Source of the DNA: Thalassospiraceae bacterium LMO-SO8
Lineage (GTDB): Bacteria > Pseudomonadota > Alphaproteobacteria > Rhodospirillales > Casp-alpha2
NCBI GenBank assembly: GCA_031655335.1
Contig: CP134226.1
Location: 3,282,001-3,346,000, forward strand
Reading direction: 5' to 3'
DNA: 64,000 bases
A model generated the notes under the pieces. That model ran no database searches and was not told where the DNA came from. It saw only the letters and a list, made by a program, of their open reading frames with translations. The stretch's first letter is position 1, and the number at the start of each line of letters is the position of its first letter. A program made the position numbers and the translations under genes. Shown here piece by piece: positions 4,604 through 16,791 of the stretch.

Positions 4604-5989
4604 ATGGCGGATAGCCACAGCTTCAATCCCAGCATCCTGCGCGAATACGACATCCGCGGCACCGTGGGCGACACCTTGGGGCCCCGGGACATGTTCGCCA
4701 TCGGCCGGGCGTTCGGCACCCTGCTGGTGCGCGCCGGCGGCAGAAGTGCTTCCACGGGGTATGATGGGCGCCTGAGTTCACCCGAACTGGAAGCGGCCCT
4801 GGCCGACGGCCTGCGCGCCGCCGGGGTCGACGTCAAGCGGGTCGGGCTTGGGCCGACGCCCATGCTTTATTTCGCCACCTACCATCTGGGCACGGACGCG
4901 GGCCTGATGGTCACGGGCTCGCACAACCCGCCGGAATTCAACGGCGTGAAGATGGTGATGCAGGGGCGGTCGTTCTTCGGCGCCGATATCCAAAGGCTGG
5001 GCGCCCTGGCGGCCCAGGGGGATTACGCCACGGGCAGCGGCGGCGAGGCCAGGATCGACATCATGGACGCCTACGTGGCGCGCCTGTTGCAGGATTTCGA
5101 CGGCGCCAAGCCGCTGACGGTCGCCTGGGACGCGGGCAACGGGGCGGCGGGCGAGGCCCTGGTCAAGCTGGTCGCCGGCCTGCCGGGCCGTCATATCCTG
5201 TTGAACGAAACCATCGACGGTACGTTCCCGGCCCATCACCCCGATCCGACGGTGGAAAAGAACCTGGCGCAGTTGAAGGCCGCGGTGGCGGCGAACGGCT
5301 GCGACCTCGGCATCGCCTTTGACGGCGACGGCGATCGGATCGGCATCGTCGACGGACAGGGCAGGGTGCTGTGGGGTGATCAGTTGCTCGCCATTCTGGC
5401 GCGCGACGTGCTGGCCGCCCATCCGGGGGCGACGATCATCGCCGACGTGAAGACGTCGACCGTGTTCTTCGAGGAAATCGCGCGCCTGGGCGGCAAGCCG
5501 CTGATGTGGAAGACCGGCCATTCCCATATCAAAAGCAAGATGGCCGAGATCGGCGCGCCGCTGGCGGGCGAGATGAGCGCCCATATCTTCTTCAAGGACC
5601 GCTATTATGGCTATGACGACGCGCTTTATGCCGCGATCCGCCTGCTCAACGTGCTGAACGGCACGGAGGCCAGCCTGGGTGACCTGCTGGACGCCATGCC
5701 GAAGACCGTCTCGACGCCGGAAATCCGCTTCGATTGCGCCGACGACCGCAAGTTCCAGGTGGTCGAGGAAGTCCGCGCCCGTCTGGCCACGGAAACGGGC
5801 ATCGCCGTCCACGGCATGGACGGCGTGCGGGTACAGTCGGAGGACGGTTGGTGGCTGCTGCGTGCATCCAATACCCAGCCGGTGCTGGTCGCGCGCTGCG
5901 AGGCCGCGGACGCGGCCGCCCTGGCGCGGCTGAAATCGGCGCTGGCCGGGCAGTTGGCGCAAAGCAACGTGGCTGTGCCGGACCTTTAG
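4604..5989 (+). CDS. Phosphomannomutase/phosphoglucomutase (AlgC/ManB type)
   Basis: 461 residues, as in AlgC-type alpha-D-phosphohexomutases. The phosphoserine loop TGSHNP has the catalytic serine at S106; the magnesium loop DGDGDR is at 240-245; GEMSAHIFF is the sugar-specificity loop and RASNTQP near the C-terminus is the phosphate-binding loop. It interconverts hexose-6-phosphate and hexose-1-phosphate (glucose and/or mannose). After galU-ugd it would supply glucose-1-phosphate for UDP-glucose, and possibly mannose-1-phosphate. Whether glucose or mannose is preferred cannot be read from sequence. It ends 40 bases before the next structured region and is the last gene of the run. Confidence 0.93.
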   Translation: MADSHSFNPSILREYDIRGTVGDTLGPRDMFAIGRAFGTLLVRAGGRSASTGYDGRLSSPELEAALADGLRAAGVDVKRVGLGPTPMLYFATYHLGTDAGLMVTGSHNPPEFNGVKMVMQGRSFFGADIQRLGALAAQGDYATGSGGEARIDIMDAYVARLLQDFDGAKPLTVAWDAGNGAAGEALVKLVAGLPGRHILLNETIDGTFPAHHPDPTVEKNLAQLKAAVAANGCDLGIAFDGDGDRIGIVDGQGRVLWGDQLLAILARDVLAAHPGATIIADVKTSTVFFEEIARLGGKPLMWKTGHSHIKSKMAEIGAPLAGEMSAHIFFKDRYYGYDDALYAAIRLLNVLNGTEASLGDLLDAMPKTVSTPEIRFDCADDRKFQVVEEVRARLATETGIAVHGMDGVRVQSEDGWWLLRASNTQPVLVARCEAADAAALARLKSALAGQLAQSNVAVPDL

Positions 5990-8659: not shown

Positions 8660-8965
8660 CGTTTGCCGGTTTCGGAGAGGGCGGTGACGGACGATTCTCC
8701 GGTCCGGGGCGCGCGCCGGACCGTTTTGGACGACGGCTGATCCGGTTACGGGCCGGCCTGTTGGAGAATTCCTGGACGCGGGACTTGGCGCTGGCGGGTG
8801 CTCTGCCCATATATTCTGGGACAAGCGGCAACCGCACCCCGGACCCGGGGCTTCCCCGGGCAATCCTTTTTAAATAGAATTGGATTACCGTCGGAGTGGC
8901 AGGCCGCTTCGGCGGCGCCGATGGGCGGCGGTCGCCGGCCCGAACACGGCAAGGACAGGACGGAG

Positions 8966-9334
8966 ATGACAGGACCGACAGACCCGCCAAAATCTCCCAT
9001 CGACCCGGGGCGGGACGATGACTCCGGCACCGGTTTGGCGGTCAAATCCCGCACGCGGACCAAGCGTCCGTCCATGTACAAGGTCCTGATGCTCAATGAC
9101 GACTACACGCCGATGGAGTTCGTCGTTCATGTCCTCGAGCGTTTCTTCGGCATGAACAGTGAGCAGGCTACCCAAGTGATGCTGCATGTCCACCAGCGCG
9201 GGGTGGGCGTCTGCGGCGTCTTCACATATGAAATCGCCGAAACGAAAGTGACACAGGTCATGGATCTGGCGCGTCAGCATCAGCATCCTCTCCAGTGCAC
9301 GATCGAGAAAGACGGCGGCGGAGATGAGGATTAG
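8966..9334 (+). CDS. clpS: ATP-dependent Clp protease adaptor ClpS
   Basis: 122 residues. The N-degron pocket is intact: N44-D45-D46, T48 and M50 in LNDDYTPM, M72, and H76 in MLHVH (equivalent to E. coli ClpS N34, D35, D36, T38, M40, M62 and H66). The disordered N-terminal extension (1-35), needed for delivery to ClpA, is present. I chose the ATG at 8966, preceded by AGGACAGGACGGAG; a longer in-frame start 168 bases upstream gives an unlikely extension over the promoter. ClpS binds N-terminal Leu, Phe, Tyr or Trp and hands substrates to ClpA. Its stop codon is followed directly by the clpA ATG. Confidence 0.95.
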
Positions 9335-11647
9335 ATGCTTTCACGCGAGCTAGAACAGACCCTTCACCGCGCCCTGGCCCTCGCCGCCGAGCGTAATCAC
9401 GAATACGCAACCCTCGAACACCTGCTTCTTTCCCTGACCGAAGACCCGGATTCCATCGCGGTGCTGAAGGCCTGCGACGTGGAGGTCGAACGCCTGATCG
9501 CCGACCTGACCGAGTTCCTCGACAACGAACTGGCCGAGATCGACAACCCGCGCGGGCTTGAGCCCAAGCCGACGGCGGGCTTCCAGCGCGTCGTCCAGCG
9601 CGCCGTGATCCATGTCCAGTCGTCGGGCCGCGAGGAAGTGACCGGCGCCAACGTGCTGGTGGCCCTGTTCTCGGAACGGGAATCCCATGCCGTCTATTAT
9701 CTGCAACTGCAGGACATGACGCGTCTCGACGCCGTCAACTACATCTCCCACGGCATCGCCAAGGTGCCCGGGCGTTCGGAGCAACGCACCGTGTCCGGCG
9801 CCGACCCGGAAGCCGAGGCCGAGGCGGTTGCCCGCAAGGGCTCGGAAGCGCTCGACGCCTATTGCACCAACCTGAACAAGAAGGCGAACGAAGGCCGAAT
9901 CGATCCCCTGATCGGCCGCCACGAAGAGGTCGACCGCGCCATCCAGATCCTGTGCCGGCGCAACAAGAACAACCCGCTGTTCGTCGGCGACCCGGGGGTG
10001 GGCAAAACCGCCATCGCCGAAGGTCTGGCCAAGCGCATCGAGGACGAGGACGTGCCCGAGGTGCTGCTCGGCAACACCATTTACGCTCTCGACATGGGCG
10101 CCCTTCTGGCCGGAACCCGCTATCGCGGCGATTTCGAGGAGCGCCTGAAGAACGTCATGGCCGAACTCGAAGCCATGCCCAAGGCGATCCTGTTCATCGA
10201 CGAAATTCATACGGTGATCGGCGCGGGCGCCACCTCGGGCGGATCCATGGACGCGTCGAACATCCTCAAGCCCGCCTTGCAAAAGGGCGGCCTGCGCTGC
10301 ATGGGCTCGACCACCTACAAGGAATACCGCAACTATTTCGAAAAGGACCGCGCCCTGGTGCGCCGGTTCCAGAAGATCGACGTGTACGAACCGTCCATGG
10401 ACGACACGATCAAGATTCTCAAGGGCCTGAAGCCCTATTTCGAGGAACACCACAACGTGCGTTACACCAACGACGCCATCAAGGCGGCGGTGGAACTGTC
10501 GACCAAGTACATCCACGAACGCAAGCTGCCGGATAAGGCCTTGGACGTGATCGACGAGGTCGGGGCGTCGCGCATGCTGCTGCCGCCGGGCAAGCGGCGC
10601 AAGACGGTCACCGTGAAGGACGTGGAACAGGTGGTCGCCAAGATCGCCCGCATTCCGGAAAAATCGGTGTCGTCCGACGACCGCAAGGCGCTGAAGAACC
10701 TGGACCGCGACCTGAAGACCATGGTGTTTGGTCAGGACAACGCCATCGAGGCTTTGGCCAGCGCCATCAAGCTGTCCCGCGCCGGCCTGCGCGAACCGGA
10801 AAAGCCCATCGGCTCCTACCTGTTCTCGGGCCCCACGGGCGTCGGCAAGACCGAGGTCGCGCGTCAGCTGTCGCACATGATGGGCATCGATCTGGTGCGC
10901 TTCGACATGTCCGAATACATGGAACGCCATTCGGTCTCGCGGCTGATCGGCGCCCCGCCGGGCTACGTCGGCTTCGATCAGGGCGGCCTGTTGACCGACG
11001 CCGTCGATCAGCAGCCCCATTGCGTGCTGCTGCTGGACGAAATCGAAAAGGCCCACCCGGACCTGTTCAATATCCTTCTTCAGGTCATGGACCACGGCAA
11101 GCTGACCGACCACAACGGCAAGTCCGTCAGCTTCCGCAATGTGATCCTGATCATGACCACCAACGCGGGGGCGGCCGACCTGGCCAAGCCGGCCATCGGG
11201 TTCGAACGTGAAACCCGTGTGGGTGAGGATACGGAAGCGATCGAGCGCATGTTCACGCCCGAATTCCGCAACCGTCTGGATGCCATTATTCCCTTCGCGG
11301 CGCTGACGCCGGAAGTCGTCGCCCGTGTCGTCGACAAGTTCATCATGAACCTGGAATTGCAGCTTGAAGACCGGGGCGTGGTGATCGAGCTGACCGACGC
11401 GGCGCGTGAATGGCTGGCCAAGCGGGGCTTCGACAAATTGTTCGGCGCCCGGCCGCTCAGCCGCGTGATTCAAGAGAACATTAAGAAGCCCCTGGCCGAG
11501 GAGCTGTTGTTCGGCAAACTCGTCAAGGGCGGCATGGTTCTGGTCGGCGTCGACGACGACAAGTTGGTGTTCGATTTCCCCGAACCGGGATCGACCCGAC
11601 TCCCGGCCAAGCGCAAGAAGGGCAAAGTTCCCGCCCTGGTCGAATAG
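9335..11647 (+). CDS. clpA: ATP-dependent Clp protease ATP-binding subunit ClpA
   Basis: 770 residues with the ClpA architecture: N-terminal Clp repeats that dock ClpS (1-145), AAA1 with Walker A GDPGVGKT at 218-225, and AAA2 with Walker A GPTGVGKT at 499-506 followed by LLLDEIEKAH. The middle coiled-coil insertion of ClpB is absent, which separates it from ClpB. It unfolds substrates in the cytoplasm and feeds them to ClpP (not in the window). There is no gap between the clpS stop and this ATG, so translational coupling is likely. Confidence 0.97.
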   Translation: MLSRELEQTLHRALALAAERNHEYATLEHLLLSLTEDPDSIAVLKACDVEVERLIADLTEFLDNELAEIDNPRGLEPKPTAGFQRVVQRAVIHVQSSGREEVTGANVLVALFSERESHAVYYLQLQDMTRLDAVNYISHGIAKVPGRSEQRTVSGADPEAEAEAVARKGSEALDAYCTNLNKKANEGRIDPLIGRHEEVDRAIQILCRRNKNNPLFVGDPGVGKTAIAEGLAKRIEDEDVPEVLLGNTIYALDMGALLAGTRYRGDFEERLKNVMAELEAMPKAILFIDEIHTVIGAGATSGGSMDASNILKPALQKGGLRCMGSTTYKEYRNYFEKDRALVRRFQKIDVYEPSMDDTIKILKGLKPYFEEHHNVRYTNDAIKAAVELSTKYIHERKLPDKALDVIDEVGASRMLLPPGKRRKTVTVKDVEQVVAKIARIPEKSVSSDDRKALKNLDRDLKTMVFGQDNAIEALASAIKLSRAGLREPEKPIGSYLFSGPTGVGKTEVARQLSHMMGIDLVRFDMSEYMERHSVSRLIGAPPGYVGFDQGGLLTDAVDQQPHCVLLLDEIEKAHPDLFNILLQVMDHGKLTDHNGKSVSFRNVILIMTTNAGAADLAKPAIGFERETRVGEDTEAIERMFTPEFRNRLDAIIPFAALTPEVVARVVDKFIMNLELQLEDRGVVIELTDAAREWLAKRGFDKLFGARPLSRVIQENIKKPLAEELLFGKLVKGGMVLVGVDDDKLVFDFPEPGSTRLPAKRKKGKVPALVE

Positions 11648-11674: not shown

Positions 11675-12814
11675 GTGGCGTTTTCCTTCCTTTCCGGGAT
11701 CCGGGTTCTCGATCTCAGCCAATACCTGCCGGGACCGCTCGCGGCCCAGGTCCTCGCCGACCTGGGGGCGGAGGTGGTGAAGGTCGAGCCGCCGGCCGGC
11801 GACCCGCAGCGCCATCTTGATCCCATGTCGGGTCTACTCGATCCCGATGTGGTCGAAGGCGGCGACGCCTCCCCCTTCTATCAGGTGCTTAACGCCGGCA
11901 AGACGGTGACCCGCCTCGACCTCAAGTCCGAGGGCGGCAGGGCGTCGTTCCGGGACCTGGTCCGGGGCGCCGATGTTCTGCTGGAAAGCTATCGGCCCGG
12001 GGTGATGGACCGGCTCGGTTTCGGATATGACGCGGCCAAGGCCCTGAACCCAGGGTTGGTCTATTGCGCGCTGACGGGATATGGGCAAACCGGGCCGTTG
12101 CGCCTGGCCGCCGGGCATGACCTGAACTACATGGCGGCCACGGGTGCGCTCAGCCAGGCCGGAACGGCGGCGGAGCCCGCCATGGCCTGGCCGCCCATGG
12201 CCGACTGCGCCGGGGCGGTGATGTCGGCCCTCGCCATTCTGGGCGCCCTGGTGCGCCGGGGCCGGGACGGGCGGGGCGCCTTCCTGGACGTCGCCATGTC
12301 CGACTGTGTCCTGTCCTGGCAGGCCATTGGCCTGACGGCGGAAAGGCTCGGCCTCGGCAAGGCGCGGGGGGCGGCGCTATTGACTGGCGGGGCCGCGTGC
12401 TACCGGGTCTATGCCTGCGCCGACGGGCGGGAATTGACGCTCGGTAATCTGGAGCCCCGGTTCTGGGAAAACTTCTGCCGCGCCGTCGGCCGCGACGATT
12501 GGACCCCACGCCAGTGGGAGGCGCTGCCGCAATCCAATCTGATCTCCGAGGTCACGGCGCATCTCGCCGGACAGCCGTTGGATCATTGGCTGTCGGTGCT
12601 GGACGGTGTCGATACCTGTGTGCAGCCGGTCGCCGATTACGCGGGCGTCGCGGACCAGCCGCAGGTGCGGGCACGGGGCCTTGTGACGGACGATCCCCTC
12701 GGCGGGGTGCAGGTGTTGCTGCCGATCCTCGTCGACGGCCTGACCACGGGCGCGCGGGCGCCGCTGGTGCCGCGCACGGCGGAACAGATTTTACAGGATT
12801 GGGAAAACGTCTAG
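11675..12814 (+). CDS. CaiB/BaiF CoA-transferase family protein, alpha-methylacyl-CoA racemase-like
   Basis: 379 residues beginning at a GTG 28 bases after clpA. The family III N-terminal signature GIRVLDLSQYLPGPLAAQVLADLGAEVVKVE is split over residues 8-38. GHDLNYMAATG holds the conserved aspartate of the active site; in this form (GHDxNYxA) and at this length it fits alpha-methylacyl-CoA racemases better than the roughly 400-residue formyl-CoA transferases. The reaction would be epimerisation of 2-methylacyl-CoA or CoA transfer between carboxylates; the substrate cannot be read. Its last four bases (CTAG) are shared with the stop codon of the convergent minus-strand gene. Confidence 0.85.
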   Translation: MAFSFLSGIRVLDLSQYLPGPLAAQVLADLGAEVVKVEPPAGDPQRHLDPMSGLLDPDVVEGGDASPFYQVLNAGKTVTRLDLKSEGGRASFRDLVRGADVLLESYRPGVMDRLGFGYDAAKALNPGLVYCALTGYGQTGPLRLAAGHDLNYMAATGALSQAGTAAEPAMAWPPMADCAGAVMSALAILGALVRRGRDGRGAFLDVAMSDCVLSWQAIGLTAERLGLGKARGAALLTGGAACYRVYACADGRELTLGNLEPRFWENFCRAVGRDDWTPRQWEALPQSNLISEVTAHLAGQPLDHWLSVLDGVDTCVQPVADYAGVADQPQVRARGLVTDDPLGGVQVLLPILVDGLTTGARAPLVPRTAEQILQDWENV

Positions 12815-13446
12815 CGGGCGAGCTGGGGACAGTCGGCTTCGCGGGTCAGGCCGACCATGGAAGCGCCCTGCGACGACAGGCGCAGGTTGCCCTTGGCGCC
12901 GATCACGTAGGACTGGCTGCCCAGCGGCTTGCCGTTGGCGGCCATGCGAATGACCTGGGCGGCGCGGCAGGCGCGGCAGTTGTTCACCAGGAACACGCCG
13001 CCGTTGCCCTTGTCCGTTTCCAGGGTGATGCATTTCTTGTCGCTGTCGTCGACGAGCGTTTCCGGTTTCACCAGATTGGCCTGATCGCAGGGATAGATGG
13101 AACCGAGGCTGGTCCGGCCCGGGCCGCGGAACGGCAGGGGCAGGGTCATGTTGGCCATGACGTTGAACTTACGCACTTCCGGGTTGGAATAGCCCTGGCG
13201 CAGGCGGGTCACCCCGACCACCATGCAGGCGTTGCATTTGTTGACCAGAACTTCGCCCGTGCCCGTGCGGCCGTGGCGGATGCAGTCCGCGCCCGGGGCC
13301 AAGGCCGCCGCCGTGCGGATCAGGGGGTTGATCCCCATGCCTTCCGCGTCGGGCACCCGAGGTGCCGCGATGGCCGCCGCCGACAGCAGCAGCACCGCGA
13401 CGAGCGCGGCGGCGGTCAGCAGGTAAATTTGCACATAGCGTTCCAT
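12811..13446 (-). CDS. Secreted or periplasmic protein with a duplicated four-cysteine unit, function unknown
   Basis: 211 residues with an N-terminal hydrophobic signal (about 8-28, ending AIAAP). The mature part is two copies of one unit: a cysteine, a short stretch, then LVNxCxAC followed by V-x-R. Copy 1 has C55, C71, C74 and C120; copy 2 has C139, C157, C160 and C206. The last spacing is exactly 46 residues in both. The paired CxxC and spaced cysteines suggest either two disulfides per unit in the periplasm or a metal site. The start has a strong ribosome site (AAAGGGG). I do not recognise a named family. The gene is alone and overlaps the end of the CaiB-type gene by four bases. Confidence 0.75.
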   Translation of the reverse strand: MERYVQIYLLTAAALVAVLLLSAAAIAAPRVPDAEGMGINPLIRTAAALAPGADCIRHGRTGTGEVLVNKCNACMVVGVTRLRQGYSNPEVRKFNVMANMTLPLPFRGPGRTSLGSIYPCDQANLVKPETLVDDSDKKCITLETDKGNGGVFLVNNCRACRAAQVIRMAANGKPLGSQSYVIGAKGNLRLSSQGASMVGLTREADCPQLAR

Positions 13447-13538
13447 AACCCCTTTACTTTAGGGAATATTGGTAAAGGAAACGTGACCGGCATCACACTT
13501 GCGCGCGATTTTCGAAAAATTTGTCTAGAAAATTGATT

Positions 13539-14708
13539 TTATTCTGATTTTTTAAAGGGAGAGAACGCCCCATAGGCGGACATTTCCCGCTCGATTCCCC
13601 TGGATTCGTCCTTCAGAAAGCCGGAAACGGCATCTCGGAAGCCCTTGTCGGCGATCCAATGGGCGGAAAACGTGCGGCGGGGCAGGTAGCCGCGCTGCAC
13701 CTTGTGAGGGCCCTGGGCGCCGGCCTCAACCCATTTCAGGCCGTTCGCGATGGCATAGTCGATGGCCTGATAATAGCAGGCTTCGAAGTGCAGGAACTTA
13801 TAGTCCGCGACGCAGCCCCAGTTGCGGCCGTACAGCGTGTCGCCGCCGCGCAGGTTCAAGGCACCCGCCACGGGCCGGCCGTCCTTTTCCACCACGATCA
13901 GGACCACGGCCCGGCCCAGGCGTTCGCCCAGCAGGGAAAAGAACCGGCGCGTCAGGTAGGCCTGGCCCCATTTCTTGTCGGTCGTGTCCATGTAGAATTG
14001 GAAAAAGGCGTCCCAATGGGCCTCGGTGATGTCGGGGCCTTCGAGGGCGCGAATGTCCAGGCCGGCGTCATGGACGGCGCGGCGCTCCTTCTTGATGTTC
14101 TTGCGCTTGCGCGATGACAGTTCGTCCAGGAAATCGTCGAAGGTTTTGAATCCCTTGTTCTCCCAATGGAACTGCTGGCCGATGCGTTGCAGGTATCCGG
14201 CATCCCCGAACGCCACCCATTCGGCCTCGGTGGGAAAGGTGACGTGCAGCGACGACACACCTAGGTTCTGGGCCAGCTGCGCCATGCCGGCGATCAGGGC
14301 AAGACGCATCTCGCGGCGTTGGCCGTCGGGCAAGGCTTGGTTGACCAGCAGGCGCGGCCCGGTCACCGGCGTGAACGGCACGGCGCATTGCAACTTGGGA
14401 TAATAGCGCCCGCCGGCGCGCTCGTAGGCGTCGGCCCAGCCCCAGTCGAACACGTATTCGCCGTAGGAATGGTTTTTCAGGTAAAGCGGCGCGCAGGCGG
14501 CGATGCCGCCCGCCGGGTCCTCGATCACCAGATGCTGACCGAGCCAGCCGGTTTCCCCCGTGGCCGATCCGGAGTCCTCCAGCGCCGACAGAAAGGCGTG
14601 ACGGACGAAGGGGTTGTCCGTTCCGGCACAGGCGTCCCAGGCCTCGGGCGAGACCTCGGAGAGGGATTTGACAATCTTGATGGCGACCGCGTCGCGTCCG
14701 TCGGGCAT
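13539..14708 (-). CDS. FemAB/GNAT-fold N-acetyltransferase-like protein (COG3146 type)
   Basis: 389 residues, soluble. The length and blocks such as SSRKRKNIKKERR (about residues 190-202) and GRNWGCVADYKFLHFEACYYQAIDYA (split) match the DUF482/COG3146 group, described as peptidoglycan-related acyl- or aminoacyltransferases with tandem GNAT folds. The donor and acceptor are not known for most members. The start is an ATG with a weak ribosome site. The neighbouring genes give no further clue. Family placement is fairly sure; the reaction is not. Confidence 0.8.
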   Translation of the reverse strand: MPDGRDAVAIKIVKSLSEVSPEAWDACAGTDNPFVRHAFLSALEDSGSATGETGWLGQHLVIEDPAGGIAACAPLYLKNHSYGEYVFDWGWADAYERAGGRYYPKLQCAVPFTPVTGPRLLVNQALPDGQRREMRLALIAGMAQLAQNLGVSSLHVTFPTEAEWVAFGDAGYLQRIGQQFHWENKGFKTFDDFLDELSSRKRKNIKKERRAVHDAGLDIRALEGPDITEAHWDAFFQFYMDTTDKKWGQAYLTRRFFSLLGERLGRAVVLIVVEKDGRPVAGALNLRGGDTLYGRNWGCVADYKFLHFEACYYQAIDYAIANGLKWVEAGAQGPHKVQRGYLPRRTFSAHWIADKGFRDAVSGFLKDESRGIEREMSAYGAFSPFKKSE

Positions 14709-14969: not shown

Positions 14970-16082
14970 ATGCGCCACACTCATCCAGCACGGGCATCAA
15001 GCGATGGGCGTATGGAGTTTGCGTTGCTTCTTGCCGTCGTGCTGCTGACAGGGTGCGGGACCGCACAGGATTTGTTTATCGTCGACCGGGCCCTGATCGA
15101 TAACGAACAGGCGGCGAGCGACGCGAAAGGGTTACACGCGCCGCCGCCGATCAACCTTGATCTGTTCGTCTTTCTGGATGATTTCCGCAAGGAGGTCGTC
15201 TGGGACTCAGACAAGGAGAAGCTTGTTCCCAAGAATCCCGACAATGGCGAAGGATTCAAAATCGCCTACGGCAAGGCGGTCAACGATCCGGCAAACCGTA
15301 ACCGGCTGCAAGACGTCATCATGAACCGTTCGGAACAGATTTGTACCCATCACAAAGGGGCGATTCTGGCCAATTCCGCTGTGTTTAATTTCTCCACGTC
15401 GTTGCTGTCGACGATCCTATCAAGCGTATCGGCCGTGGTTGGCGGAGAGGTTGCGAAGTCGGCTATTTCGACGGCGTCTGCTTCCGTGAATGCGGCGGGC
15501 ACGGCCGTCAAGGCAGAGTTCTACCAGAACTTGCTGGCGGCGGCGATCGTCAACAAGATCGTGCAGACCCGTGCGACGATCAAGCAGGGGCTTATCGAGA
15601 AACGCAAGTTGAGCATCAAGGACTACAGCGTCGATCAGGCGATCGGAGACGCCTACCTTTATCACACGGCCTGTTCCTTCTACGAAGGCCTGGTCGGGCT
15701 GACGAAAGATAAAGAAGCGCCGGTCAAGACCCGCGAAGATATCGATAAGGAGATCGACGCGCTTAAGAAAGAAAGCGAAGCGCTGCGCACCAAACTTGCG
15801 ATCCCCACGGGAACTGCCGGTGCCCTGAACGCCGACGACCAGCGCGCCGCCCGGGTGCAGATCGATCTTAACAACGCGCGAATTCTGGGGTTGATGCAAC
15901 AACGTGCCACGGCGCCCGGCGCGGTCAGCGCCGGTGCGGCTGGTGATGGCTCGGCCGGCAGTGGCGCGGCCGGCGATGGCGCGGCCGGGGATGGCGCGGC
16001 CGGTGGCGGTGCCACGGGCGGCGGGGTGCCCGCAGGGAAAGTCACGCCCGGAGAGCCGGTCCCCCCGCCGCAACAAAGGTAA
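14970..16082 (+). CDS. Predicted lipoprotein of unknown function, low-complexity Gly/Ala tail
   Basis: 370 residues. A lipobox LTGC with C29 follows a hydrophobic stretch, so the product is probably an acylated lipoprotein; an AAGGGGG ribosome site supports the first ATG although a second ATG 42 bases later is also possible. The body (40-290) contains a stretch rich in Ser/Ala/Val/Thr (about 130-185) that could form membrane-interacting helices, and a charged helix (245-275). The last 50 residues are a repeat of GDGAAG-like units. Codon and base use are less GC-biased than the neighbours. The next gene encodes a YiiX-like cysteine hydrolase and the pair is likely one unit. No family recognised. 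Confidence 0.7.
   Translation: MRHTHPARASSDGRMEFALLLAVVLLTGCGTAQDLFIVDRALIDNEQAASDAKGLHAPPPINLDLFVFLDDFRKEVVWDSDKEKLVPKNPDNGEGFKIAYGKAVNDPANRNRLQDVIMNRSEQICTHHKGAILANSAVFNFSTSLLSTILSSVSAVVGGEVAKSAISTASASVNAAGTAVKAEFYQNLLAAAIVNKIVQTRATIKQGLIEKRKLSIKDYSVDQAIGDAYLYHTACSFYEGLVGLTKDKEAPVKTREDIDKEIDALKKESEALRTKLAIPTGTAGALNADDQRAARVQIDLNNARILGLMQQRATAPGAVSAGAAGDGSAGSGAAGDGAAGDGAAGGGATGGGVPAGKVTPGEPVPPPQQR
15930..16040 (+). repeat. Short tandem coding repeat (GGCGCGGCCGGNGATG-like unit)
   Basis: Imperfect tandem copies of a unit of about 18 bases encode the Gly-Asp-Gly-Ala-Ala tail of the lipoprotein. Copies around 15950-16010 are nearly identical, so copy number may vary between strains by slippage without shifting frame. 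Confidence 0.6.
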
Positions 16083-16152: not shown

Positions 16153-16791
16153 ATGCGGCGCATCAACGCGAAGGCGTTCAAGAACGCACCGTCCGGCGAT
16201 GCGGTCATTGCCGCCTATGAGGCTATCCGGCCGACACTCAAGACCTGCGATCTGCTGCTATGTTCCGGCGATTATGCGTTTTCCAAAATCATCCGCAAGG
16301 CGACCTCCAGCGATTGGAGCCACGTCGCCCTAATTGTCCAAGCACGCGCAATCGGCCGGGTTCTGGTTCTTGAAAGCGTCGAACCTGAAGGGGTGCGGGT
16401 GGTGCCGTTTCGCAAGTATCTGTTGGATTATAAGGATGGCAAGGCGTACCCGGGTGGTATCGCGGTCGCCAGCCTGAAGGCGCAGCCGAATATTTCGGAT
16501 CGCCGGGTGATGTCGAAGTTCGGTCAGCAGGCTGTCGATCTGTTCGGTTATCCTTACGACCGGGACCAGGTTTTGAAACTGGCGCTGCGTGTCGCGCAAA
16601 GCACGTTGTTCGGGGCCAATGCAGGGGCCCAGGACTTTGACAACGATAAGGAGTTCATCTGTAGCGAATATGTCGCGATCTGCCTGCGTGAATTAGGACT
16701 GGGCGAGATTCCGCCGGGACCGCACGGGTTCGTGGCGCCCGTTGATTTCGTGCCGTTGCTGACTGATTTCAAATATCTCAAGCGACCGTGA
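16153..16791 (+). CDS. YiiX/YebB-like permuted NlpC/P60 cysteine hydrolase
   Basis: 212 residues with no signal peptide. The order of catalytic residues is that of the circularly permuted papain-fold group: histidine H57 in WSHVALIV, a possible E74 in LVLESVE, and the cysteine C170 in FICSEYVA. YiiX/YebB-like members are thought to act as amidases, peptidases or deacylases on lipids or peptides. The start has a strong site (GAGAGGAAG). It follows the lipoprotein gene after 70 bases and shares its lower GC content. Its 3' end overlaps that of the BtuF-like gene by 14 bases. Fold and catalytic triad are well supported; the substrate is unknown. Confidence 0.8.
   Translation: MRRINAKAFKNAPSGDAVIAAYEAIRPTLKTCDLLLCSGDYAFSKIIRKATSSDWSHVALIVQARAIGRVLVLESVEPEGVRVVPFRKYLLDYKDGKAYPGGIAVASLKAQPNISDRRVMSKFGQQAVDLFGYPYDRDQVLKLALRVAQSTLFGANAGAQDFDNDKEFICSEYVAICLRELGLGEIPPGPHGFVAPVDFVPLLTDFKYLKRP

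What the first reader, a model, noticed from the sequence alone, without database searches (positions are those of the whole stretch)
12811..13446. Secreted protein made of a duplicated four-cysteine module
Both halves carry C-x(15 or 17)-C-x2-C-x45-C with LVNxCxAC and the exact 46-residue final spacing (C74-C120, C160-C206). This is internal duplication with all eight cysteines retained. I do not know a named family with this pattern; it could be a redox, metal-binding or disulfide-locked structural module.
Basis: seen in the sequence. Interest (0 to 1): 0.55.

Follow-up and report, generated by a model that had tools for sequence, protein, structure and literature searches.

The report
Tandem disulfide-locked secreted protein family
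This is an exported bacterial protein built from two copies of a small cysteine-rich beta-sandwich domain, a member of an unnamed family found in one group of alphaproteobacteria, probably a sturdy binding protein of the cell envelope whose partner is still unknown.

Summary
Confirmed, on the minus strand. The 211-residue protein has an export-type N-terminus and two homologous ~68-residue modules with four cysteines each. No Pfam or NCBIfam model reaches its cut-off. Copies were accepted in 90 of 316 genomes sampled from the order (91 matched, one rejected); samples of the class (385) and phylum (299) gave no accepted copy but the window's own. All eight cysteines are kept in 26 of 26 rows chosen without a cysteine filter, and 86 of 92 distinct sequences are regular. 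Both halves are predicted as the same six-stranded Ig-like sandwich (module pLDDT 93); fold matches include tendamistat, among many ties. Strand order suggests C1-C2 and C3-C4 disulfides, not a redox CxxC or zinc site. The duplication looks single; two lineages carry only the first module at the same locus, best read as loss of the second. An Arg-rich, F-x-GPG patch is conserved in first and single modules but not in second ones. The gene usually lies between a FemAB-like gene and convergent clpA. An upstream element resembling a response-regulator box is shared by 26 of 43 two-module loci in 11 families. Best guess: an exported, disulfide-locked binder of an acidic envelope ligand. Ligand, disulfides and regulator are inferred.

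The parts
12811..13446 (-). Coding sequence of the 211-residue two-module protein
13363..13446 (-). Export-type hydrophobic N-terminus (about residues 1-28), read by eye; no signal-peptide program was run
   Evidence: helix 3-27 in the model; hydrophobic start in relatives
13084..13287 (-). First module (residues 54-121; C55, C71, C74, C120), with the conserved Arg / F-x-GPG patch
12826..13035 (-). Second module (residues 138-207; C139, C157, C160, C206), patch not conserved
13460..13486 (-). Variant of the upstream element: TCAC-N6-TTTACC-N8-CTA (one base off TTAAC)
   Evidence: position (pattern taken from this very site, so the match itself proves nothing); element in relatives
13539..14708 (-). 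Upstream neighbour: FemAB-like protein (PF04339)
   Evidence: upstream on the same strand in 51 of 60 loci
11675..12814 (+). Convergent neighbour: CoA-transferase family III (PF02515), overlapping the end of the gene
   Evidence: 15 of 60 loci
9335..11647 (+). clpA-like AAA protein (Clp_N, AAA_2, ClpB_D2-small)
   Evidence: convergent downstream in 48 of 60 loci
8798..9334 (+). clpS (PF02617)
   Evidence: 44 of 60 loci

Best explanation
An exported protein made of two six-stranded Ig-like sandwich modules that go back to one duplication (homology shown by sequence; fold predicted). Each module is locked by two disulfides, C1-C2 and C3-C4 (inferred from strand order). The first module is the working half: towards one pole of its sandwich it carries a conserved set (R83, G85, P89, R92, F106, G108, P109, G110 and, in most relatives but not here, R113) that binds an acidic ligand of the cell envelope (inferred). 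The second module keeps the cysteine frame but not that set; it stabilises or spaces the first and can be lost altogether, as in two lineages (loss inferred). In most two-module lineages the gene has its own upstream element, a tandem box of 11-base period just before a -10-like CTA, of the kind bound by OmpR-family response regulators such as CtrA or CenR (element shown; regulator inferred).
For: Eight cysteines in 26 of 26 rows; 86 of 92 distinct sequences regular. Same strand order in both halves and a module model at pLDDT 93.0, pTM 0.77. First-against-second profile match E 1.1e-18. All 44 second modules on one side of a branch, SH-aLRT 98. Patch conserved at 75-97% in 44 first and 85-100% in 14 single modules; in second modules, apart from the Gly at module position 55 (93%), the leading residue at the other patch positions is a different one, or Arg at only 43% (position 60). 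Element T-N-A-C-N6-TTAAC in 26 of 43 two-module loci, shuffle mean 0.175, in 11 of 13 families, CTA at +14 or +15 in 20 of 26.
Against: No ligand, disulfide or regulator was tested. I had no coordinates, so the cysteine pairing and the pole are read from strand positions. R113 is Ser in the window's own genus. Acidic ligand rests on conserved Arg alone. The upstream element is not a clean CtrA box, is absent from the 14 f22 single-module loci, and a strict form is not enriched genome-wide (5 matches against 4 control matches in 10 genomes). Shuffles do not allow for shared ancestry of the loci. pTM 0.47 of the full model leaves the two-module arrangement open.
Confidence: 0.45

Rival explanations
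1. A periplasmic enzyme inhibitor of the tendamistat kind: the sandwich docks on and blocks a hydrolase of the envelope or of a competitor.
For: Module and tendamistat align over 60 residues, Z 7.0 and 6.6; parvulustat and tendamistat also appear in Foldseek (E 0.18 and 0.27). One of 26 members touches PF01356 weakly over the C1-C2 stretch of its second module. C1-C2 spacing of 16 equals that of tendamistat's first disulfide (recalled).
Against: Z about 7 is shared with many unrelated Ig-like domains in the same list. The PF01356 match is 12.7 bits against a cut-off of 25. The conserved patch lies at the C-D and E-F loops, not in the A-B hairpin that tendamistat uses (recalled).
Confidence: 0.15
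2. An accessory of the neighbouring FemAB-like acyltransferase, acting on or protecting its envelope product.
For: FemAB-like gene upstream on the same strand in 51 of 60 loci; of 50 measured gaps 43 are at most 340 bases, and 12 of 13 measured gaps in single-module f22 loci are 8-21 bases. Four genomes of the window's family that lack the gene also gave no PF04339 match.
Against: Seven of 50 gaps are 677-1710 bases. The RidA / FemAB / clpA backbone exists without this gene: clpA lies convergent beyond FemAB in 4 of 8 such loci examined. PF04339 occurs in 14 of 24 genomes where no copy was found, and in 2 of 14 control genomes. Only 4 of the 7 listed family members without a copy were tested, and joint absence may be an assembly gap. 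Most two-module loci have their own upstream element.
Confidence: 0.2
3. A periplasmic redox or metal-binding protein using the C-x2-C of each module.
For: The C-x2-C is kept in nearly every member; some members give weak zinc-ribbon matches.
Against: The other two cysteines are kept just as strictly; zinc-ribbon matches are few (1-2 of 102 each) and weak; the predicted fold is an Ig-like sandwich; strand order puts C1 near C2 and C3 near C4 (inference).
Confidence: 0.1

Closest known systems
Tendamistat / parvulustat alpha-amylase inhibitors (PF01356)
   Same: Small exported six-stranded sandwich of similar size; structural alignment over 60 residues; first two cysteines 16 apart (tendamistat's numbering recalled)
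   Different: No match above the Pfam cut-off; third cysteine 3 residues after the second instead of far along the chain (recalled for tendamistat); no conserved aromatic-Arg-aromatic triplet in the A-B hairpin; often tandem
Ig-like sandwich domains in general (transglutaminase, GH2, complement, pilus chaperone, de novo DIG8)
   Same: Predicted topology, Z 6-7 over 60-67 residues
   Different: No sequence relationship found; four invariant cysteines of its own arrangement
C-terminal sandwich domains of phospholipase C
   Same: Top Foldseek row for the full model is a PLC (9gy2, E 1.1e-3)
   Different: Global fit is poor (TM 0.21, rmsd 12.8); which PLC domain is matched was not examined; no Pfam match
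CtrA and CenR target promoters (for the upstream element)
   Same: Tandem half-sites of about 11-base period near -35; most CtrA-induced promoters have one near-consensus box at -35 (PMC11264516, passages); CenR motif TGA-N8-TGA (PMC9275681, passages)
   Different: First half is T-N-A-C, not TTAA; neither regulator was tested

Membership tests
Tendamistat family (PF01356) | Reaches the curated Pfam cut-off | tested here: not met
   1 of 26 full-length members at E 0.14, 12.7 bits against 25; not among the 25 of 27 families shown for 102 modules
Tendamistat family (PF01356) | Six-stranded sandwich of about 70 residues | tested here: met
   Predicted strands; Z 7.0 (rmsd 2.4, 60 aligned) and 6.6, tied with other Ig-like domains, so a shared fold only
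Tendamistat family (PF01356) | Two disulfides in the positions C11-C27 and C45-C73 (recalled) | tested here: not met
   First spacing fits (16), but the third cysteine follows the second by 3 in all 100 modules counted; pairing itself not measured
Tendamistat family (PF01356) | Trp-Arg-Tyr amylase-binding triplet in the A-B hairpin (recalled) | tested here: not met
   Hairpin columns show no conserved aromatic residues
Thiol-disulfide redox proteins with C-x2-C | Thioredoxin-like fold | tested here: not met
   Predicted all-beta sandwich
Zinc ribbons | Two cysteine knuckles forming one metal site | tested here: inconclusive
   One C-x2-C per module plus two distant cysteines; weak matches only; metal not testable
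CtrA-controlled genes | TTAA-N7-TTAA box near -35 | tested here: inconclusive
   Second half TTAAC in 36 of 43 two-module loci; T-N-A-C first half in 26 of 43. A perfect double box with CTA matched once in 5 genomes, not at this gene, with 2 control matches
CtrA-controlled genes | Binding or control by CtrA | not testable with these tools
   No binding or expression data
The unnamed family described here | Export-type N-terminus and one or two modules C / N-x-C-x2-C / C | tested here: met
   86 of 92 distinct sequences regular; the 6 others are one copy without C1 (G362), one cut by a contig end, one frameshifted (G428), two pieces of a stretch with unread bases (G458) and one rejected match (G360)

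The most novel reading that the evidence does not exclude
An undescribed class of extracytoplasmic recognition protein of one alphaproteobacterial order: a disulfide-locked Ig-like module binds an acidic envelope ligand with an Arg / F-x-GPG pole, a duplicated copy has lost the site and serves as scaffold, and production is tied to an envelope or cell-cycle response regulator through a dedicated promoter element shared by at least 11 families.
Probability: 0.25. Interest if true: 0.6.

Novelty: new variant of a known kind. Interest (0 to 1): 0.4.

Why it matters
A small exported protein kept at one locus across many families of an order, with its own conserved upstream element, is likely to do something useful in the envelope of these bacteria, yet the family libraries searched hold no model for it. 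The natural contrast between one-module and two-module orthologues, and between a conserved and a degenerate patch in one chain, makes its working surface directly testable. As a fold it is ordinary.

Tried and rejected
Sequence look-ups gave nothing usable: Pfam, NCBIfam, PDB and PHROGs for the protein, 26 members, 102 modules in Pfam. Sub-threshold matches set aside: BRI3 (23.2 bits, cut-off 25.9), DUF7340 (6 of 102 modules, best E 0.00037; 17.3 against 27 bits for one member), RNHCP, zinc ribbons, phrog_38617 (E 0.0024). Plasmid records: no match. Phage records and E. coli genomes were not searched. Fold libraries: no match with E under 1e-3 in PDB or viral; folds missing are not thereby excluded.

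Wider range: 2 of 299 phylum genomes matched (the window's own and a 40-residue piece with a stop at E 9e-4, not accepted); 1 of 385 class genomes (the window's own). G360, one of the 91 of 316, was rejected by me: a 43-column match antisense to a long ORF, with two cysteines only.

Remnants of a second module downstream of single-module genes: none found (the one strong match there is the rest of the first module of L077). Loss of C1 in both modules of G362 was not used as evidence on pairing: that copy has no in-frame export signal and may be decaying. A strict upstream pattern matched 5 times in 10 genomes, each time just upstream of this gene, but the reversed control matched 4 times, so no regulon can be claimed.

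A correction to my own counts: one search counted a spurious piece in L086 as a module; one search recounts. The rows of A2 were picked by a pattern that requires the four cysteines and N-x-C, so their invariance in A2 is by construction; the unfiltered evidence is (26 of 26; 86 of 92).

Literature: listings only; passages of PMC9275681, PMC2877005 and PMC11264516. No search was made for this family by any name, so I do not claim it is absent from print.

Full report
OBSERVATION. The gene is on the minus strand, 12811-13446, 211 residues. Its eight cysteines are at the reported positions and the spacings are right. Random placement of eight cysteines gives the double pattern in 7 of 200,000 trials; the alignment of relatives is the better proof.

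FAMILY AND RANGE. The protein found matches in 45 of 61 near genomes. Alignment A1 (26 rows) matched 91 of 297 genomes of the order; the module profile A2 matched 91 of 316, of which I reject G360, leaving 90. Samples of the class (1 of 385) and the phylum (2 of 299) gave only the window's own copy and one unaccepted piece. These are samples, not censuses. A close relative is Rhodospirillaceae bacterium UBA1479 (L031, 96% identity), order Rhodospirillales; the other genomes bear group codes only. No Pfam or NCBIfam model reached its cut-off and no PDB sequence matched below E 0.6.

CYSTEINES AND FOLD. In A1, chosen without a cysteine filter, all eight cysteines and both N of N-x-C are invariant in 26 of 26 rows. 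Of 92 distinct sequences found by profile, 86 are regular; the others are G362 (C1 lost in both modules), a contig end, a frameshift, two pieces of a stretch with unread bases, and G360. The full model has pLDDT 80.4 and pTM 0.47, so the relation of the modules is open, but each half shows the same six strands. The single module has pLDDT 93.0, pTM 0.77. Foldseek finds nothing with E under 1e-3. The second-look aligner puts Ig-like domains at Z 6-7, among them tendamistat at 7.0 and 6.6, a level its own note calls common. I claim an Ig-like sandwich, no more. Pairing is my inference: strands 3-8 and 11-16 form a hairpin that brings residues 2 and 18 together, and the start of strand C (22) would face the end of strand F (66), next to residues 21 and 67.

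TWO KINDS OF MODULE. Conservation differs sharply (44 first, 14 single, 44 second modules). In first / single modules: R30 97/92%, G32 86/85, P36 90/100, R39 97/100, F53 86/100, G55 95/92, P56 75/92, G57 97/100, R60 93/100 (module numbering; add 53 for the protein). In second modules G55 stays at 93%, while position 36 is most often Arg (45%), 39 Gln (40%), 53 Ser (34%), 56 Ala (81%), 57 Ala (45%), and 60 is Arg in 43%. In the window itself position 60 (113) is Ser. The set lies at the end of strand C, the C-D loop, the start of D, and the E-F loop; that these share one pole is general Ig geometry, not measured.

HISTORY. First and second module profiles align at E 1.1e-18, single and first at 9.1e-35. 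All 44 second modules lie on one side of a branch, SH-aLRT 98, on only 69 columns; the single modules fall among first modules in several places (4 changes). In family f22, 15 of 18 genomes match: 14 have one module (G458 in a stretch with unread bases) and G397 has two. In f98, G411 and G428 have one (G428 frameshifted) and G442 two; seven listed f98 genomes have none. On the FemAB tree of 63 rows, the three states need 7 changes and the single-module rows sit in two places; the outgroup did not root cleanly. Since the second modules of G397 and G442 belong with all the others, the simplest reading is one old duplication and two losses; transfer is not excluded. No remnants of second modules were found.

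LOCUS. In 60 neighbourhoods, FemAB-like (PF04339) is upstream on the same strand in 51, ClpA convergent downstream in 48, ClpS in 44, RidA-like upstream in 31, phasin in 17, CoA-transferase in 15 (families of the window's copies). Some misses are contig ends. The same backbone occurs without the gene: in G055 RidA-like, FemAB and convergent ClpA follow each other with 146 bases between the last two, and ClpA lies convergent beyond FemAB in 4 of 8 such loci (G049, G052, G055, G306). PF04339 was found in 14 of 24 genomes without a copy. The link with FemAB may be only positional.

UPSTREAM ELEMENT. T-N-A-C-N6-TTAAC occurs upstream in 26 of 43 two-module loci (mean of 40 shuffles 0.175, highest 1), in 11 of 13 families, with CTA 14 or 15 bases after the start of TTAAC in 20 of 26. 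Of 16 single-module loci only L076 (f98) has it. Shuffles do not allow for common descent. The window has TCAC-N6-TTTACC-N8-CTA at 13460-13486 (pattern taken from the site). No sigma-70-type promoter or terminator was found at 12700-13700. Period and place resemble CtrA boxes, but the first half is degenerate and CenR is a rival. The strict form matched 5 times in 10 genomes, always at this gene, with 4 control matches; a perfect double box matched once in 5 genomes, elsewhere, with 2 control matches. So a regulon is not shown.

FUNCTION. Shown: conserved cysteines, two modules of one origin, a patch conserved in first and single modules, a conserved neighbourhood and upstream element. Inferred: export, disulfides, acidic ligand, response-regulator control. 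Best reading: a disulfide-locked extracytoplasmic binding protein whose first module does the work. Rivals: FemAB accessory, enzyme inhibitor, redox or metal protein.

Noticed in passing
L088:1581-2051 / L177:382-852 (G362): Copy that has lost the first cysteine of both modules and has no in-frame export signal; a relative of the same genus (G377) is regular.
   Followed up: partly
L076:4878-5450 and 4927-5136 (G428): Single-module gene split over two reading frames, in a one-contig genome; frameshift or sequencing error.
   Followed up: partly
window 14970-16082 (+): Lipoprotein-like ORF with a Gly/Ala/Asp-rich repetitive C-terminus; among 60 neighbourhoods only that of G002 (same genus) held a match (31%).
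   Followed up: no
window 16153-16791 (+): YaeF/YiiX C92 papain-like amidase (33.9 bits, cut-off 27) next to the repetitive ORF.
   Followed up: no
L064-L074, just before the start codon: TAGAAT- or TAAGAT-like hexamers a few bases before ATG, 8-20 bases after the FemAB stop in many f22 loci (by eye); possibly a -10 box of a near-leaderless transcript.
   Followed up: no
L182 (G055) 2782-2928: FemAB and convergent clpA only 146 bases apart with no copy of the gene: a natural empty site.
   Followed up: yes
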